Shown here: one piece after another, positions 43,193-57,391 of the stretch
How the letters are laid out: each line of letters opens with the position of its first letter
How positions within the stretch are numbered: the first letter of the stretch is position 1
The notes under the pieces: generated by a model
The model's database searches: none
The model's input: the letters and a program-made list of their open reading frames with translations, nothing else
What the model was told of the DNA's origin: nothing
Position numbers and translations under genes: made by a program
Assembly (NCBI GenBank): GCA_027382625.1
Contig: JAJKFJ010021187.1
Coordinates: 29,256 to 93,255 of the forward strand
Source of the DNA: Tetmemena sp. SeJ-2015
Lineage: Eukaryota > Ciliophora > Spirotrichea > Sporadotrichida > Oxytrichidae
Length of the DNA stretch: 64,000 nt
Direction of reading: 5' to 3'

Positions 43193-44417
43193 TCAATTAT
43201 GGGCTTATTTCTCCTCTTCCTCAGAATGTCCTTGTCTTTATGCTCTTCCGTTGTTATTAGCTCCATCTCTTTATTGCTGTCTATCACTATCATCTTCTTC
43301 TACAAGCATCGTTTTCATCTTAGTGAACAAAGACTACGAATAATAATTAGCAAACATTAGAATTCTTACAGAAGTGAGACCAGTAACAGTAGACCCGACA
43401 GTAGTGAATGCAGCCTTGGATTTTTCTGTGATATCACTAACATAGGGATTTGCAGATGCAGACTCGTAAGTTTCAGAGCTCTTCTCTACAATTTTGCTGC
43501 CAATGTAACTTGTCTACATAGCTCAAAATCATTTAAAAATGCTTTAAGAAAGTTTAATTTAGCTGCTGCAGTGGCCAAGTGAGAGGCCCTCTCTGTGATG
43601 CCAGTCTCATCTAACTTTGTTTGAACTGTGCTTCCAACTGTTTACAGAGCCTCTGCTGATTTTTCCAGAGCTTTGGAGGTGTAGCTCCACATTGTGTTCA
43701 TTATAGGATTTGACGAAAACCATCCGCTTTGAGCTGGCTGCTCCTGTCCAGGCTGCTGATTCATGTTCGTACTTATTAAAAAAGCACTTTAATCTTAAAG
43801 TGTTGGAAGAAAATTGGCCATTATTTTGATTGATTTCTGAAGCAGGGCGAGCAGCCTCGACTAAAACCTCTCTTCCCAAGTCATATCCAGGCTTCTCCTC
43901 GTAAAAAGGTACTCCCTCTGTCTGACATCTCAACTGAAAAATGGTTTGACTATGATGATACCTTCTTTAAAGCATATAGGTATAAAATTCCTACGTCACC
44001 TTCATAATTTTAACTTAAGCTTCCTTTATTTCCATTTTATGTGGCAGTGCATGCATTCCTTTTCTATTTGACTTACCTAAGATCTGTAAAACTCAGCAGC
44101 TCTCGTCTTGTACTTATTCTAGACGCTTTCCTCGTTCAAGTCGTAGCCTTATAGAAATTCAAACAATTTCTTGTTTCCTCCCAGACTCATCATCTTCAGT
44201 TGCTTTTCAGTCCATTAGTCAAGGTTTAGTGAACGCACTGTTGAATAGGTCACTGTCAAGCCACGATGAATACCAGAGCAGTTCAGACAAATGAAGATAC
44301 CATTGTTAAGTGAGGCCCAGAAAGGAGAAGCAGTCCCTACAAACTTTCATCAGAAAATGTTCAAAGAAATAGAATGTAAGAGAAATCGAAAGAAATCATT
44401 CATTATCAAGTCTGATA
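43193..44417 (-). CDS. ArfGAP-family protein, main body (first segment is at 53.0 kb, opposite strand)
   Basis: GTPase-activating protein for Arf, acting on Golgi/vesicle traffic. After an acceptor-like TTTGTAG it reads [60 protein letters not shown]: the ArfGAP zinc finger from its second Cys pair, with the arginine finger region and the GG loop. C-terminal parts ([40 protein letters not shown]) resemble amphipathic ArfGAP1-type tails. An intron lies near 43342-43377 and the stop TGA is 43193-43195. The first CxxC pair is absent here, but it is found as NTRCFDCG at 53.1 kb on the plus strand. Confidence 0.85.
44405..44417 (-). repeat. 13-bp match to 53201-53213 (candidate scrambled pointer)
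   Basis: TATCAGACTTGAT read on the minus strand, just upstream of the ArfGAP body. The identical 13-mer follows the ArfGAP first segment on the plus strand. Confidence 0.8.
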
Positions 44418-44455
44418 TAAGTATTGAGAATTTATAAATCGCAGCTTGAATAAAT

Positions 44456-44467
44456 GTAATTCATAAA
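44456..44467 (-). repeat. 12-bp match to 53171-53182
   Basis: TTTATGAATTAC on the minus strand. It contains the TGA stop of the coiled-coil gene (44461-44463). The identical 12-mer occurs at 53171-53182, and the two shared words are in the same order at both loci. Confidence 0.8.
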
Positions 44468-46832
44468 ATTTATCTCTTCATGTTGTTTTCAGTTTGCCTA
44501 TTGAAGCTATTGTTACTGTTCTGATAACCCTTCTAGCTTGTAGCCTAATTAATATTAGGTATTCCAGAGTAGTATGACGCCTAAAAATAACAAAGTGAAA
44601 ACTCTTTGATATATGAGTTCATATTCTCATATAACTTCTCTTTTGGAAAATTGTTCTTCTTGTTGAGATTAATATTTTCAGTTTTCTCCTGGCTGAATAC
44701 ATCGCTAGATTGATTTAAGAATTCATTCTGATTCTGCATCTAGCCTTAATTGACTGAGAATGTGTCCAAAGCCTTGATTCCTGGGTGAGGGAAATCCGAT
44801 GTTTCAAACCTATAGCTTTTCTAATTATTCTGTAGGGTCATTAGCTACGCATGATGATCGCCCTTTTTCAAGGTTCGGTCAGAGTCTCTGTGCCTATTTG
44901 GAGTAAAGAAATCGTTTTCAATCACACTTGCTGAACTCAAGCCTTAACTCGCCCCTATTCCAAGTCCCGCACCGCTCAATATAGTTTCATTATGCTTCTG
45001 ACTGTTTGTGAGTCCACTTCTTTGTTGAAGAGGCATGTTGAAGCTCGTGTCTGGTGTTGCATTTTTCTTGTCAGTATTTTGCTTACTTGCGCCTTTGAGT
45101 AGTTGTCTGTTCTTTCTCAGATCTAGCAGCTCATTCTTGATTTGCTAATTTTCCTTAATGATATCCTTGTATCTATTCTCTAGTTGTACATAGTTTGTGA
45201 TGATATTTGTTTGCTCTTTCTAAACTGAGGTAAGTTTACACTCTAGAGTGGAGCTATGCTGCTCTAATGTTTGCAGCTTCTGCTGTGTTTACTGGTTCTA
45301 TTCGCGAGTCAATTACATCACTTCTTTTATCTAACTTCTAAGATCTTCTATGTCTCCTGCCTAATGGGGAGTTTGGGAGATGTTTGGTAGTGGCAGTATA
45401 AGGTTATGAGAAGAGGTTTGGTGCTAAGTGTGAATGTTTGAAGCACCAACCTTGCTCCTTTCATAGAGAGTCTTGATTTTAACTTGCTATGACTTCAAGG
45501 CATCCATATCAAAATGAAGACTAAGAGGAATATTTAATATCGGTTTAGTTTTCTTTTCGCTTTTGTGCCATGATACGGTAAGGACTCTTTTCAAAATCAC
45601 CTTCTTCCTAACAATTATTAACTTATAAAAAACTTACCACTGTTGGATTGGACTCTGTTTATCTCAGGTCAGTTACCGACACATATTACTGTGAGCCTAT
45701 ATTGATCAGGTCTTGCAATTTCTTCCATGTTTCATCCTACTATGGATTAAACATATTGGCATATCTCGGAGCAGCAAGTCTTTTCTTGTTTAGCTCAGAT
45801 TTTGACTTTATCATATTGGCCGCTTGCTTCTGGGAGTTGATAATCAAAATATAAAAAGAGTTTGATTAAAATTAAATTGAAGAACTCATTCGCCAAAAGG
45901 TTTTGTGCATCGAAATTCTCTTGCTAAGAGTTTTCTGTTCCTTGACTGTAGAGTTGCTACTCGTTTTACTTTTCTTAAAGCCTTTGCAAATACTCACTAC
46001 TCTTTTCTCTTCCTTCATATTGATGACCCTAATAGTTCAGACTGTCATTTTACTTTCCAGGCTTCTAAATTGTGGCAATCTGCTAATTTATAAAAGACTG
46101 CTGATTATGAGTCTGGTTAAAAGCGGAACCTACTGGCTATCCTTAAAAAAATATATTTTCTCCTCTTGGCCGGCTTTAAGATCTGACATCTTGAATTTAA
46201 GTAGCTCCAGGTATAAGAAGCTGCTTTTAGGAATTAACCTAGATGTTCTCCTAGGTTAAGAAATTGTTCATCTAGATGTTGGAACTGTCGTTAATCGACT
46301 CTTCTGATTGTAAACATAAAGCAAAGTATGATTGCATATCTATGGCCTATACTTGCTAGAAAATGTCATTTGCCTATTCCTCTAGTCGGTTTATTTTTCG
46401 CTTTGTCTTTTTAGGATCTACGTTGATCATTAAATTAATCATCATATCAATAGTTAAGGTGGATCATTTATCTTCTCTGAGCTTTTGAAATGTCGTCACT
46501 AATGTTAACAATTTCATTATTCAAGTCACTATACATTAAACAAAGTAAAATGCCATACATAGATTAATAGTTCACTAAGAAGTGAGTCAATCTTTCCAAT
46601 GGTCTATCTTCTCAGTACTCCACTTATTCTGCTTCCATATCCATGTAAAGTCTTTTTACTCTTAGTGATCTATTCGATAAGTTTGAACACTCTGAGCTTC
46701 TAGTTTTCTAATTTGTCTATGACTGTTACTTTCTCAATAGATTCGTGGCTCTTTCCAGACTTCTGTCTCAAGTTTTAAGTCGCAGGTTTATTGCTACTTT
46801 AATTGGGGCGGGTTGTTAAAAAAGTTCTACAT
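44461..46832 (-). CDS. Coiled-coil, Q/N-rich hypothetical protein
   Basis: First ATG at 46832 (MQNFFNNPPQLKQQQ). A basic helical region follows (HESIEKVTVIDKLENQKLRV). A Q/N/E-rich middle reads SEYLQRLQEKQNEQQLYSQG. Then come KKRLAAPRYANMFNPQQDET, a 30-bp intron and a long heptad-like coiled coil (EVMQLTREQNQQTQQKLQTL, NYVQLENRYKDIIKENQQIK), followed by a low-complexity tail ending RQTENNMKRQIL and TGA at 44461-44463. About 700 residues. It could be a cortical or centrosomal scaffold, but that is only a guess from composition. Segments are collinear. Confidence 0.65.
45511..45541. other. IES, pointer GATAT
   Basis: Minus-strand GATAT at 45506-45510 and 45537-45541. Removal gives QKRKENQTDMDALKSQQV and eliminates a TGA. 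Confidence 0.8.
45608..45637 (-). other. Intron (30 bp)
   Basis: Minus-strand GTAAGT...TTGTTAG in the coiled-coil gene. Splicing gives ESNPTVEEGDFEKSPYRIM. Confidence 0.8.
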
Positions 46833-46834
46833 GC

Positions 46835-47180
46835 TCAGTTTAGTTTGGAAAATAAATAATTCATCCTAATTTAACAAAATTATCTTACCAAGTTAAAAAA
46901 TAAATTAATTATGTTGTATTAAGGGGTGAAGAATTCTCTAATTTTCAAGGACTTAAAAATCTGCTCATTAAAAACATTGAAAATCCATAATGGTTATTTT
47001 ATTCATTTTTAATGAACACAGATCTACTACTCATTTTAGAATAGAATTAGATTTAAGTCAGTTATTTATATTATTAGAGGCTAATGCATAAAGTCAGTTG
47101 TAAATAAATATTATCTGAGAATTAGAAACTTGTAAAATAGACTTTCTCTCGTTATTAAGATATAAAAATAAATAAATCTT
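46835..47180. other. AT-rich intergenic stretch
   Basis: No supported gene between two minus-strand genes. Very AT-rich. Confidence 0.5.
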
Positions 47181-48016
47181 TCAGGACGAAATATTAAGCA
47201 ACTAGAGATGGAAGGCTATCAGGATTCTACCCCTGTAAATTGAAATTCGTTGAGTGAGCTTAAAACTAATACTCATTCGATATTAAAATTAATGAGGATA
47301 GGAATCATGATCATTAAAATCTTTGTAGACTTATTCTGCATTTAAAAGAGACACATTTAAAATTTATAGTGCATAATTAGCCCTCAAGGCCTAGTTTTAT
47401 TAAGAATTTTCTCTCTCCTTATCTTTTTAAAAATTGATGCTACTTAAGTTACTATATGGATCATAGATGCTGGTACTTGCTCCTCCATAAGTATAGTTTG
47501 ACTGCTAATGGTAAGTAGGCACGCTCAGCTGTTAAGTCTGTGCCTGGAGATTAAAGGAGGGTTTGTAAGAATGCTGCTGAGAGAATGCATGATCAGCTGA
47601 TGAGTTAGGGATCGGATTAAGATGAGAGTTAGGATATTTGCCATAAGTAGATGTCTGATAGGAATCTGGTTATGTATTGAGAGTGTGCATTTAAGTATTG
47701 TTATTTGAAGGAGGGATGCTCTTTGTTCTGAGACTTTGAGGGTTATAGTTAGAGTTACTGTAATTGGAAGCTCTCTAATTGCTTATACTTCTGGAGGCTG
47801 CTATCGTATTCTTATCTGATGGTTTGCTGTTGACCTGCTATCACCCTATAATATAATTAACTTTAAATAAATAGATGAGTTTGCATACGCATATTATTTC
47901 CACCCACAGCAGACTGAAGGGAACTGTTCCTGAGGGTTGATTTGCTTGCAGGTCTTTTTGAATTAGACTGAGTGCTTCCAGAGTGATGATTGGACTAAGA
48001 GTAATTGTAACTCATT
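47181..48016 (-). CDS. S/N/Q/Y-rich hypothetical protein
   Basis: ATG 48016: MSYNYSQSNHHSGSTQSNSK. After one AT-rich insert (about 47820-47880) a long clean frame continues (SRSISNQRASNYSNSNYNPQ, STYGKYPNSHLNPIPNSSAD, SVPTYHQQSNYTYGGASTS) into a less biased C-terminal part and TGA at 47181-47183. It resembles prion-like low-complexity RNP proteins in composition only. The last 60 or so codons may be read-through into 3' sequence. Confidence 0.55.
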
Positions 48017-48019
48017 TTA

Positions 48020-48386
48020 TTACTAAATTTTAATTTAATTAAAAGTAGCGCAACAACAACAATTAACCATCAACAGCTAATCAATCTAAGTTGAACTTTA
48101 TTAAGACAATATAGACTTAAGAATGACAATTTATTTAATCATAGATTTGATCATATATATATTTCATTTACTCTCCTCCCACATATCTCTTTTATCATGA
48201 ATATGCTCTAAGCTACCTTGAATATAGCTTGCATATGAAAATAAAAATTATTCTGATATTCAGAGTTAGTGAGAGTGTCTTATTCTCTATTGTTTCTCCT
48301 TTCCCCGAAGCTACTTTTTTAATGATTGATGATAAGTGTTTATAATTATTGCACTATAACTCTTAAATTATAATCGAGAGCTTATA
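48020..48386. promoter_or_regulatory. Divergent intergenic region
   Basis: AT-rich spacer between the minus-strand S/N/Q-rich gene and the plus-strand DYRK gene, so it holds both 5' ends. A run of CAA triplets lies at about 48050-48063. Confidence 0.4.
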
Positions 48387-52594
<4,208 letters not shown>

Positions 52595-52599
52595 AGGAA

Positions 52600-53036
52600 T
52601 TCAATTTTGCCATGATATCCTTCAATCGCCACGGGTATAAATCTCATTTTAACTTAATACATTCTGTGAACAGTCGGTTATAAAGCACAGCTAATTTATT
52701 ATCATTATAATCTTTATCACTTAAATTTTGAGACTTACTCTCAACTTAAAAGAATCTTGGATTATTATAAATAATTGATTTAATTTGCGCAAGAAATATT
52801 CATAAATCTAAATAAATTTACTAAGTGCAAACTATTAAATTAATTTAGGACTGAATTTTAAAAGTTTCATAATTTAAACATCATATTTTATTTCTAAAAT
52901 ACCTTTCTTTCAGTTTATTAGTTATATTAAATTATGTTTCTAAATTCCGGGATAGAATTCGAGTGAAATCTTTTCCATATCTCCTTCTTTATAAGTGAAT
53001 GAATTGTTTATATGAATCGATTGCAATTAATTGTTA
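52600..53036. other. AT-rich intergenic stretch
   Basis: No supported gene between the DYRK stop and the ArfGAP first segment. Confidence 0.5.
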
Positions 53037-53213
53037 ATGATAGACAACACAATCAGCCAAATTGTATTCAAGCAACTTAAAGAAATTCCAGAGAATACTA
53101 GGTGCTTTGATTGCGGTAAGTTCTCTTTCTCTATCTGTTAGAAATAAATCTGGGCTACCGAGAATCCTTGTTTATGAATTACTATGCTATCATTTGCGTT
53201 TATCAGACTTGAT
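53037..53213 (+). CDS. ArfGAP first segment (MDS1), separated from its gene body
   Basis: ATG 53037: MIDNTISQIVFKQLKEIP, then ENTRCFDCG followed at once by a GTAAGT donor. The N-x-x-C-x-D-C-G end is the start of an ArfGAP zinc finger, but the expected P-x-W-A-S continuation is missing here. It is present at 44.34 kb on the minus strand behind an acceptor. Joining gives [18 protein letters not shown] with 16 residues between Cys pairs, the normal ArfGAP spacing. The segment then carries two words (53171-53182, 53201-53213) shared with the sequence just before the gene body. Confidence 0.8.
53171..53213 (+). repeat. Two shared words: 12 bp and 13 bp, also at 44456-44467 and 44405-44417
   Basis: TTTATGAATTAC at 53171-53182 and TATCAGACTTGAT at 53201-53213, separated by 18 bp. 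Inverted identical copies lie 9 kb upstream, 38 bp apart. They are candidate MDS-joining pointers. Confidence 0.8.
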
Positions 53214-53346: not shown

Positions 53347-56300
53347 ATGTTAAAGAATAATATTGGAGCTTTATTTATATAAATTGCAATTAGCTTATAT
53401 AAAGAAGAAACAAACAGTTGTAAAATACTACAAAGCTAAAGAGAAACAGAAAACAACACTTATTTAGCAACAGACACACAAATGCAACTAAATTAAAGGC
53501 TTCAGTCTTAAAGCAGAGAAAAATACTAAAAACAGCCAAAGTATTAGGGCAGTGTAAGGCAAACCGAATCTCAACAACAGCTGATGAATCAAGCCTAAAA
53601 CCTTAATCTCAAGTCTTAACTACTATACTCACCTCTAAGCATTATAAATTATTTACAAGCTAAACAAGTAGACAAGTAGAGGGTAATTCGAGCGATGTTT
53701 AGAGAGAAAGCAATCTTAATTAAGATCTTCAGGATCAGCCTTTGAAGTCACTTTACTTCCAGGAAAATGCAAAATAAATGCTCTCGCCAAATAATAATCA
53801 AGGACACCAAATACACGCATCAAGCACTTCTAAAATGAGCTAGTTCCAGCCTCTGATTTAGAAGAATAATTTCGTTAGGGATTCATACAGAAATTCCTAA
53901 GATCCCTTTAAGACAAGCGGCGAGACTCCAATGAGCAAGAGAGAATATAATCAGATGCTTCCTGGTGTGCAAAACATGAATGTTTCTTCTAGTCATTCCA
54001 ATTATGGAACAGTTAATTATAAAATGTGGATGCATTATTTGAACTGCTAGACTTAACTCTGCGATATAGAAGGATAGGAATCGAAGAAGAGAAAATAGGC
54101 GTTAGATAGCTGCAACTTACAATATCTCAGCCAAAAATAGGAAATTTGATCGATTGATGTCAGCCGAGCCGTCTTTCCAGCAGAGATACGCAAACTAATA
54201 GTCTTTAATTTTAGAGTTATCTTTGAATTTTTCTCAGCCTATAAATTTCCAAGAAGAAGGTGGTGATACAAACCAAGAGCAGAGATTGATTTCTTCTAAT
54301 CAAGAAGAATAGAACTTCGAGCTCAAAACAGGAAAGAGAGGAATGAATACTCAAGAGGAACTGGAAAATTACAATCAGCTATTATCTACGCTACCTGAGA
54401 TCAAGTCAACTAATTTCACCGTTGACCATGAAGGAGCTTTGAGCCCTACACAAGTTGTTTAGTTCAGAGATGAGGAATTTAAGGATGACTAGAGAAGTGA
54501 TTCAAATGTTAATATCAGACTAGATTTGGGAGGCAACAGTTAGAGAGGAAGATACTAAAGAAATCTGACTAATTTTGGCTAGGGAATTAACAGGTCCAGT
54601 TCTAATACAAGAGATAGATAAAACACTCTTTTCGGCATGTCTAACTCTTCTCTATAGCTCGCACCTTCATAAGGGACATTACTTTCTAAAAATATGACTC
54701 TCAAGCAAAGATAAAGTAAACTAGCGAGAGGTGAGTATCAAGAAAATGCTGTTGGGAATGAAATACCTTAGAATCTTAGCGAAGTTTCACCAGAGTTAGC
54801 TGCGTAGATTGTGAAGCACTTCATATTGCCGATGTTTGAAAGTGATAATAAGAAATATCTGAAAAAGAAGTATAGCCTTCACAGCGCAGTGCAGAAGAGC
54901 AAAGGCTTGAAAACTAAGTCTTCTCTTGGGCAAGATCATTTACAGTCTCATTAATTTACAGATATACTTAAATGAGTGTTCTCCAAAGACTGTTTATGGA
55001 GAATTGAAGCTTAGTGAACAGTTGAATGAGCAGCTAAGTTAACTAAAAGATAGATTCGACTCTTTGCAAGAGACTCTTGAAGATGTTACCTACTAAAGAG
55101 ATCAATGCTATCATTCTATCTCTTTAGATTATTCAATAAACATTTGAATGCAGAAGAGAGATGAAAGAACTAAACACTCGATACATGAAGAAAGTAGAGT
55201 AGAATAAAAATCTGCAAAGGGAGAACTAGCTTCAGAAGCAAACTATGACTTAATCAGTTATGAAATGCCTCCAGTTAATTTCATCATTATATATCCATCT
55301 CATTAAAAATTTCAAGTGGCAACTCCTTGGCTTCTTTTTCTCAAATATCTGAGCAATACAGAAAGTACTACGCTGAACTTCTAAGAGATTAACTTGTGAC
55401 AACCGACCACTTGAAGTATCAGCTTCAAGAAGTGTAGTCCACTAAAGCCTTAAACGAGGCAAAGTATGAAATCATAGAAGAGCAGTTGAAGTTCCTCTAC
55501 AACTCACTCCAATCTTTGGCTAATGCAAAGAACCTAGAAGACAAGTTCTAATTCCAAATTGATCTTCTCTCTATTTAAAAAAATGTGATCTCTATATTAA
55601 AGCAATATAATATGGAGAAGGGAAAGTTATAGTCAGAGAAGCAAGACCTATCAGAGCAGCTCAGAAGAATCACTTCTTAGAGAGATGAAGCCAACGAATT
55701 CTTGTCTATAATGACAACCTCTCGAACTCAAATTCTGAGACAAAAGGAGGAGTTGAATTCTCAGTTCAAGGCTTAAATGCAAAAGCTTGAAGAAGACTTC
55801 AAGACTATGAAAGTAGAGTATGCAAAGGCACTTGAAGAGCTGGCAAAGCTTGAAAAATTCAATAAGTAGCTTCTAAATGAAAGAGACAAGATGAAATATC
55901 GGTTGCTGAAGTTGAAGAACAGGCGCTTCAAGATAGACTAAGATCAGAAGATTTGCAAGAAGTGTGGGCGCGAGTACAATGAGAAGGAAAATTACAATTG
56001 GAGCTGTAGAACACATTAGAGTGAGTTCGGTGGAGAGATGTGGTGGTGCTGTGGAAAGACCGAGAAGGAAGCTGCTGGTTGTAAATTCAGTAAACACGAA
56101 AGTAAGGAGGACGAGGAGGATGATATGGATCCAGATGATAAACTCTAAGATCAATTAAGGCAACTCAAAAACGTACGCTGTCTCTGCTGTAAGGAATTAG
56201 GGCATCGGATGGAGTAATGCCCAAGAGATCCAAACATGAGAACAGCCGGGCTGCCTTAAGAAGAAAGTGAACGCATCTCTAGGATAAAGGACTTTAGGAG

Positions 56301-57391
56301 GCTATTCTAAGACACTATGGTAATGACTGCTCTGTTTTTGAAGAAATGCGTTAAAGTTCCTAATAATTTATTCTTAACTTGGCAATGATTCAATTATTTC
56401 AACATTCCAAAAATGAAGACAAGGGAGCTAAATATGTCTGAGACTTTTGAGCGTAGTAGGATAATCCAATAGATGGATAAGCTGAAGCATAACCCTTTCA
56501 AGCGTGGAGCGATGCGCTTTGAGGATTATAACTACAATATGTACAACCCATACATTTTGGTGGACAGTTAGTAAGCATAGCAAATGCAGAAGAAAGGTGG
56601 CTATTCAGGGGGAGGCGGCTAAACTTCAGGACAAAATGCTGCTGCTACTATCGGTGGAGAAATGAAGTTAACTGAGAAGAATCTCGAAGAATCAATCTAA
56701 TTTGAAATATTTATTAGCTCTTCTTTAAATTTAAACTAGCTGCAGTATGAATTCGAGGACATATAATTCGTGCCAAACAATGATGATAATGACAACGGGA
56801 GCAATGAATTGAAGGGAGAAGACATGCAGCGTCAGAGTTTGAGAAAAGACCTGCAAGGATAGTCTCCTCCTATGGGTAGCGAAGAACCTCGATTAGACTC
56901 AGTAGCTTATAACAATATATTTAAAGGAAGTAATTGCTGATGGTGAAGGAGATGACTCTTTTGAGATTATTGAGGAAGAAGACGCAGAGGAGTACACAAT
57001 ATTCTTTGAGAGAGATGAGATTGCTGCAACTAAATAGAATTAACAGCAAGATGCATTTGACGACATAAACAACTTATCATTTTGTTGCATTATTTACTAT
57101 AATCAATAGTATTTGGTATTATGTAATATAAAGCAATTAATTTAATATGTAACTATATTCAATAGTTTAAAATAGATAAATCCTTTTAGTTTAGAGAGGA
57201 AAGTTAATTGTGGCAGCAGAAGAGGCACTGACTAGGATAATATTGCTAAAAAAGGGAAAATATTTAATTTTATTGCTTAAGAAGAGCTGAAGTAAAATCA
57301 AGCCAAGAGGGAAAACCTCTACTCAGAAATAAAAAAGCTAATAAGAGAAGACAACTACTTTATCAAATTTTAGATACTTTATAAACGCTGA
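53347..57391 (+). CDS. Coiled-coil protein with CHORD-like zinc domain and CCHC zinc knuckle
   Basis: Low-complexity N-terminus (QLMNQAQNLNLKSQ; later MSAEPSFQQRYANQQSLILE), then ELAAQIVKHFILPMFESDNK, long coiled coils (LKLSEQLNEQLSQLKDRFDS, AELLRDQLVTTDHLKYQLQE, EDFKTMKVEYAKALEELAKL). A zinc module reads CKKCGREYNEKENYNWSC, then RTH, WWCCG, GCKFSKH (55.95-56.1 kb), resembling CHORD spacing. A CCHC knuckle CLCCKELGHRMEQC follows (56.17-56.22 kb), then HNPFKRGAMRFEDYNYNMYN and an acidic tail (SFEIIEEEDAEEYTIFF). One IES is solved (56361-56408); others lie at about 54.95, 55.1, 55.3 and 56.9 kb. The 3' limit is uncertain. Function unknown; zinc-binding is inferred. Confidence 0.65.
56361..56408. 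other. IES, pointer TTCC
   Basis: TTCC at 56357-56360 and 56405-56408. Removal gives KKCVKVPKMKTRELNMSE and eliminates a TGA. Confidence 0.75.

What the first reader, a model, noticed from the sequence alone, without database searches (positions are those of the whole stretch)
43193..53213. ArfGAP gene split into inverted parts 9 kb apart
The N-terminal half of the zinc finger (NTRCFDCG) lies on the plus strand at 53.1 kb. The other half ([20 protein letters not shown]...) is on the minus strand at 44.3 kb. Joining them restores the exact 16-residue spacing between Cys pairs. Neither piece makes a finger alone. This is what a scrambled gene with an inverted MDS should look like, with complete unrelated genes (coiled-coil, S/N/Q-rich, DYRK) lying between.
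Basis: partly seen in the sequence, partly recalled or inferred. Interest (0 to 1): 0.88.

Follow-up and report, generated by a model that had tools for sequence, protein, structure and literature searches.

The report
Scrambled germline ArfGAP with inverted first exon
In this ciliate-type germline DNA the first exon of an ordinary gene lies about 9 kb from the rest and on the opposite strand, and flipping the stretch between two matching 13-base tags would rebuild the gene; it looks like one more example of a gene-scrambling process already known in such single-celled organisms.

Summary
The + strand at 53037-53115 encodes MIDNTISQIVFKQLKEIPENTRCFDC(G), ending at a GTAAGT donor. The rest of an ArfGAP gene runs on the - strand from 44336 to a TGA at 43195-43193. 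Joined in phase, the pieces give one 321-aa frame; its best relative (P0001) is 72% identical and spans the join without a gap. The ArfGap profile score rises from 83.0 to 110.9 bits. Both pieces are single-copy in the 146 Mb assembly. The DNA looks germline: frames are interrupted by short AT-rich segments, two of which have no GT-AG solution. The scrambled-gene reading is therefore best. Two refinements: the break lies inside a phase-1 intron (same position and phase in one paralogue), not in the finger's coding sequence; and a 13-bp pointer candidate occurs at both breaks in inverted orientation (53201-53213, 44405-44417), so that one inversion rebuilds the gene with a 166-bp intron and deletes no neighbour. 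Unproved: no somatic sequence was available, the species was not identified, and an accidental inversion or a misassembly is not formally excluded. Known kind (scrambled gene, inverted MDS, embedded neighbours); interest modest.

The parts
53037..53115 (+). Exon 1 of the ArfGAP gene (MIDNTISQIVFKQLKEIPENTRCFDC plus first base of G27), coding part of the inverted first MDS
   Evidence: with G27, 20 of 27 residues identical to P0001
53116..53213 (+). 5' part of intron 1 (GTAAGT...) up to and including the pointer candidate
53201..53213 (+). Pointer candidate TATCAGACTTGAT at the end of the first MDS
   Evidence: once on each strand in the window
44405..44417 (-). Second copy of pointer candidate TATCAGACTTGAT, head of the second MDS
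44337..44417 (-). 3' part of intron 1 (...TTTGTAG) from the pointer to exon 2
44077..44336 (-). Exon 2 of the ArfGAP gene (second Cys pair and most of the GAP domain)
43934..44076 (-). Intron 2 (GTAAGT...TTTTTCAG, 143 bp); removal gives an ungapped match to P0001 (other frame-restoring choices exist)
43805..43933 (-). ArfGAP coding segment 3
43768..43804 (-). Frame-breaking interruption (37 bp between AACA repeats, borders uncertain); the only GT-AG solutions found are 25 and 31 bp and lie elsewhere
   Evidence: site B
43565..43767 (-). ArfGAP coding segment 4
43524..43564 (-). 41-bp IES, 80% AT, flanked by AGCTA; no frame-restoring GT-AG pair of 25 bp or more found at this site
   Evidence: site C; ungapped match to P0001 after removal
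43370..43523 (-). ArfGAP coding segment 5
43334..43369 (-). 36-bp in-frame insertion GTAAGAATT...TTCGTAG (short intron or IES), absent from P0001
43193..43333 (-). Last ArfGAP coding segment, TGA stop at 43195-43193
51384..52594 (+). DYRK-type kinase domain lying between the two ArfGAP pieces, in order, with one 69-bp intron and three or four short interruptions (true gene start not determined)
51979..52020 (+). 42-bp IES in the DYRK gene, AAGAT repeat (the only GT-AG alternative found adds one residue)
52157..52198 (+). 42-bp IES in the DYRK gene, GCAT repeat (the only GT-AG alternative found loses a conserved Cys)
52461..52497 (+). 37-bp IES in the DYRK gene, 84% AT, CTG repeat; no GT-AG alternative of 20 bp or more found
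44461..45663 (-). Coiled-coil-type ORF (by eye; no Pfam match) directly upstream of the second MDS; its TGA lies inside the shared 12-mer TTTATGAATTAC (44456-44467)

Best explanation
This is a scrambled micronuclear (germline) gene of a spirotrich, probably hypotrich, ciliate. The first MDS (5' end, exon 1 and the start of intron 1, + strand to 53213) and the remaining MDSs (- strand from 44417 down) lie in opposite orientation 8.8 kb apart. They carry the same 13-bp pointer as an inverted pair. During macronuclear development, recombination at this pair inverts the interval, which places exon 1 166 bp upstream of exon 2 in one orientation. Short direct-repeat IESs are cut out, telomeres are added, and the transcript is spliced normally. 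Shown: the two pieces and their phase, a relative that carries both, single copy in the assembly, non-GT-AG interruptions in the same gene and its neighbour, and the inverted 13-mers with a correct in-silico product. Inferred: that the joining happens in development, that this 13-mer is the pointer used, the kind of ciliate, and the RNA-guided mechanism.
For: Joined frame of 321 codons with no internal stop after removal of introns and IESs. P0001 crosses the join ungapped, 20 of 27 identical in exon 1 and 99 of 124 in the following segment. Exon 1 matches P0001 at 16 of its last 22 residues before G27, against 6, 8, 11, 8 and 6 of 22 and 7 of 17, 5 of 15, 7 of 18 for the eight paralogue loci compared. 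Each of the five other ArfGAP bodies whose profile match starts at this break has a first Cys pair 50-131 bp upstream on the same strand. Among 400,000 random draws of two 150-base windows (overlapping pairs skipped), 664 shared a word of 13 or more bases and 17 shared two separate words of 12 or more. The inversion between the 13-mers gives exon 1, a 166-bp GT-AG intron and exon 2. Germline marks. Weakly: exact tracts of three C4A4 repeats occur in only 3 contigs of 5213.
Against: No somatic sequence of this species was found; exon 1 and body each occur only once in the assembly, so the joined product has not been seen. A second shared word (TTTATGAATTAC, 12 bp) and a 7-mer (TTCTCTT, which would give a 53-bp intron, nearer the 49 bp of the paralogue intron) are alternative pointers; a 7-mer match giving an intron of 30-120 bp turned up in 33% of 1000 random pairs. 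The 13-mer is not rare in the assembly: 22 copies, against 7 for the same letters read backwards. Short direct repeats of 3-5 bp are easily found by chance (searches list many), so IES borders are approximate.
Confidence: 0.88

Rival explanations
1. A recent chance inversion of the 8.8 kb interval in this germline copy broke the gene; the 13-mers are where it happened and the cell does not repair it in the soma.
For: The geometry (one inversion between short inverted repeats) is the same for an accident as for a programmed event. Both pieces are single-copy here.
Against: The reading frame is otherwise intact over 321 codons and well conserved, though a recent break would leave it so too. The gene already needs DNA excision at another site, so it sits in a genome that edits its genes.
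Confidence: 0.06
2. Assembly artefact: exon 1 or the interval was placed in the wrong orientation.
For: One contig only, no reads to inspect.
Against: Both pieces with their flanks are unique in the assembly; a 13-bp repeat is short to mislead an assembler, and a misjoin would not be expected to coincide with a pointer-like inverted repeat (inference).
Confidence: 0.04
3. The two pieces are separate somatic genes joined by RNA trans-splicing (exon 1 ends in a canonical donor, exon 2 follows a canonical acceptor).
For: The split falls inside a GT-AG intron, as in the split introns of diplomonads (recalled, not looked up).
Against: Non-intron interruptions nearby point to DNA editing; the inverted 13-mers are explained by DNA joining and not by trans-splicing. 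No pairing test between the intron halves was run.
Confidence: 0.02

Closest known systems
Scrambled genes with inverted MDSs in Oxytricha and Tetmemena germlines (PMC9797194: abstract, sections 5, 6, 8, 9, 10, 11 and passages seen)
   Same: MDSs needing inversion, repeated pointers at MDS ends, pointers longer at scrambled junctions; 13.6% of Tetmemena loci need translocation and/or inversion
   Different: Only one scrambled junction was recognised here, and it lies inside a retained intron; no somatic map was available
Embedded and Russian-doll loci of Oxytricha trifallax (PMC5940158: passages seen)
   Same: Loci of other nanochromosomes lie inside one IES of a scrambled gene
   Different: Shallow; only the DYRK kinase domain was shown to be whole between the pieces
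Intron-IES coincidence and interconversion (PMC9797194 section 10; PMC1805493 passages seen)
   Same: A DNA-rearrangement junction at an intron position
   Different: What I saw there concerns an IES or pointer at the position of an intron in a relative, or repeats flanking introns; here a scrambled junction appears to sit within an intron that stays in the somatic gene

Membership tests
Scrambled micronuclear gene of a spirotrich ciliate | Coding segments of one somatic gene out of order or inverted in germline DNA | tested here: met
   Inverted pieces and a relative that carries both in one protein:
Scrambled micronuclear gene of a spirotrich ciliate | Matching pointer at the end of MDS n and the start of MDS n+1, in the orientation the joining needs | tested here: met
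   13-mer; 664 of 400,000 random draws share 13 or more bases. Which repeat is used is unproved
Scrambled micronuclear gene of a spirotrich ciliate | Germline DNA with AT-rich IESs that are not introns | tested here: met
   ArfGAP 43524-43564 and DYRK 52461-52497 have no GT-AG alternative within the lengths tried
Scrambled micronuclear gene of a spirotrich ciliate | Somatic molecule with the joined sequence, one pointer copy and telomeres | not testable with these tools
   No macronuclear copy in the assembly
Scrambled micronuclear gene of a spirotrich ciliate | Species is a spirotrich | tested here: inconclusive
   In the 19 ArfGap matches of the assembly the stop codons read through are TAA and TAG only. 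Of 8 relatives listed the best carries only a number from EukProt and the second is Halteria grandinella. The rRNA search did not complete
ArfGAP | C-x2-C-x16-C-x2-C zinc finger and the following conserved Arg of the GAP domain (roles recalled) | tested here: met
   Complete only after the join: 110.9 bits against a cut-off of 28.7; R51 invariant in the 5 aligned proteins, query included
Embedded locus (nested nanochromosomes) | All MDSs of another nanochromosome lie within one IES of this gene | tested here: inconclusive
   DYRK kinase domain whole; gene ends and nanochromosome ends unknown

The most novel reading that the evidence does not exclude
The scrambled junction sits inside an older spliceosomal intron, so DNA joining and RNA splicing act in series on the same spot and small errors of DNA joining are removed by splicing. 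Because the pointers are inverted, joining is a plain inversion that keeps the embedded genes, so one germline copy could yield all the nanochromosomes. The two shared words in the same order (12-mer and 13-mer) could be remnants of an inverted duplication that started the scrambling.
Probability: 0.35. Interest if true: 0.5.

Novelty: new member of a known kind. Interest (0 to 1): 0.3.

Why it matters
It is a small, clean case with one inversion, one pointer pair and one intron, in which the germline-to-soma joining step, the tolerance of an intron to imprecise joining, and the fate of embedded genes can each be tested. It adds no new principle to what is known of scrambled genomes.

Tried and rejected
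Different partner for exon 1: rejected. Of 19 ArfGap matches in the assembly (all 21 first-look candidates were scored, but the tool calls such counts lower bounds), six besides the window's start at profile position 18 or later. One of these (C2123:156054, position 49) lies beside a match that starts at position 10 and was left out; the other five each have a first Cys pair 50-131 bp upstream on the same strand. Four of those five read EN..C.DC; the fifth (L014) is LNQLCADC and is the weakest. The pattern also gives further hits, probably chance, in L015 (366 and 793 bp), L018 (246 bp) and L020 (829 bp). The remaining 12 matches start at profile positions 2-10 and include the first pair.

Different N-terminus for the body: rejected. 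No other N..C.DCG in the window; three looser hits at +43588, +46247 and -58150 do not look like ArfGAP. Just before exon 2 another frame reads KVCRDC, but it runs across the acceptor and is out of frame with the body.

Intron shared with paralogues: only partly. Of five paralogues examined, L013 has a 49-bp GT-AG intron at exactly this position and phase. L012 has a 113-bp GT-AG intron 8 bases further downstream and in another phase. L011 fits only with a weak acceptor (GCCAAG). L014 and L015 have no GT-AG solution within the limits tried and look like IESs.

Pointer choice: TTCTCTT gives a 53-bp intron, but such a match is common by chance. A gapped alignment of the two flanks was only weakly unusual (22 and 89 of 3000 random draws scored as high under two scoring schemes), so a duplication origin is only a possibility.

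Telomere scan: 21 overlapping matches in 3 contigs. The tool's own control (pattern read backwards, 28 matches) is nearly the same repeat and therefore not informative; assemblers may also trim telomeres, so this is weak.

Species: not identified. The assembly (146.2 Mb, 5213 contigs) matches none of the three germline assemblies in Table 1 of PMC9797194 (496, 237 and 172 Mb). A paper search with its size found none naming it in the listing. P0001 carries only the EukProt number 403336610; that it is Oxytricha trifallax is my guess. I make no claim that scrambled junctions inside retained introns are undescribed: two searches, one section and passages of four papers did not settle it. PMC10901763 was opened for abstract and outline only.
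Full report
What is there. The window is G000:C2266:29256-93255 of a 146.2 Mb, 5213-contig assembly. In the 19 ArfGap matches of that assembly the stop codons read through are TAA and TAG, never TGA, so the code is read as TAA/TAG = Q (table 6). On the + strand, 53037-53115 reads MIDNTISQIVFKQLKEIPENTRCFDC plus one base, followed by GTAAGT. On the - strand, 44336 downwards reads (G)[25 protein letters not shown]..., preceded by TTTGTAG, and ends with TGA at 43195-43193. The phases fit (one and two bases of a Gly codon), giving C-x2-C-x16-C-x2-C.

The pieces belong together. The joined protein has 321 residues without a stop. Its best match among 8 proteins found is P0001 (328 aa, 72% identity over 90%), which begins [48 protein letters not shown] and aligns through the join without a gap; Halteria grandinella P0002 does the same at the join. 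Identity to P0001 is 20 of 27 in exon 1 and 99 of 124 in the following segment. The last 22 residues before Gly27 match P0001 at 16, and eight paralogue loci of the same genome at 6, 8, 11, 8 and 6 of 22, 7 of 17, 5 of 15 and 7 of 18. The Pfam ArfGap score is 83.0 bits for the body, 15.1 for exon 1 and 110.9 for the join. Each piece has one copy in the assembly.

Control with the other ArfGAP genes. Five other bodies begin at this break; all five have a first Cys pair 50-131 bp upstream on the same strand. One of them (L013) has a GT-AG intron at exactly the same position and phase, another (L012) has one 8 bases further on. The intron is therefore probably older than the split, and the window gene is the only one of these six whose first exon is elsewhere.

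The DNA is germline. In the ArfGAP body a 41-bp, 80% AT segment flanked by AGCTA breaks the frame and no GT-AG pair was found that repairs it; removal gives an ungapped match to P0001. A second break nearby (site B) has only GT-AG solutions of 25 and 31 bp, which replace sequence that P0001 shares. In the DYRK gene between the two pieces, a 37-bp, 84% AT segment has no GT-AG solution either, and two 42-bp segments flanked by AAGAT and GCAT fit the aligned relatives better than their single GT-AG alternatives. A further 28-bp segment in the DYRK gene is ambiguous. Exact three-repeat C4A4 tracts occur in 3 of 5213 contigs, which is not what an assembly of nanochromosomes with untrimmed telomeres would show (telomere type recalled; weak evidence).

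The junction. Comparing 150 bases after exon 1 with 150 bases before exon 2 in transcript sense gives a shared 13-mer, TATCAGACTTGAT, and a 12-mer, TTTATGAATTAC, in the same order. In the window each occurs once on each strand; the 13-mer occurs 22 times in the assembly, its backward reading 7 times. In 400,000 random draws of two 150-base windows (overlapping pairs skipped), 664 shared a word of 13 or more and 17 shared two separate words of 12 or more. Inverting 44405-53213, from 13-mer to 13-mer, puts exon 1 166 bp upstream of exon 2 with a GT-AG intron. The 12-mer overlaps the stop codon of the neighbouring coiled-coil ORF; it may be chance, an alternative pointer, or a remnant of duplication.

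How it most likely works. [quoted passage not shown] An inverted pair is joined by inversion. This places the embedded genes upstream of exon 1 without deleting them, and fragmentation with telomere addition then separates them (inference). RNA guidance of the process in Oxytricha is stated in the abstract of PMC5940158 (passage) and only assumed here.

What is known. In Tetmemena 13.6% of loci need translocation and/or inversion. In Oxytricha 2,021 of 15,811 processed somatic contigs are scrambled and 1,847 are found only embedded in IESs of others. Intron positions near rearrangement junctions are reported. This locus is one more of that kind. The only less usual point is that the inverted junction lies inside an intron that the somatic gene would keep.

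Noticed in passing
51384-52594: DYRK-type kinase domain, on + and in order, with one 69-bp intron and three or four short interruptions; the closest database relatives listed are 72% (P0009) and 85% (P0025, over 65% of the query) identical, both unnamed and on contigs under 3 kb.
   Followed up: yes
1-2500: Gene with a cyclic-nucleotide-binding domain (ORF 589-1851, cNMP_binding, 38.4 bits); an ion-channel part upstream was judged by eye only.
   Followed up: no
L014 and L015 (G000:C3295, G000:C4007): Near the position of the ArfGAP intron two paralogues seem to carry an IES-like segment in place of a GT-AG intron, a possible case of intron-IES exchange within one gene family.
   Followed up: partly
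L005, L006, L007: Three loci on different contigs give the same ArfGap match (68.8 bits, positions 3-106), probably duplicate or allelic contigs; two further contigs (C4630, C2332) share another match in the same way.
   Followed up: no
55264-56388: ORF with a sub-threshold BTK zinc-motif match (20.7 bits against a cut-off of 24).
   Followed up: no
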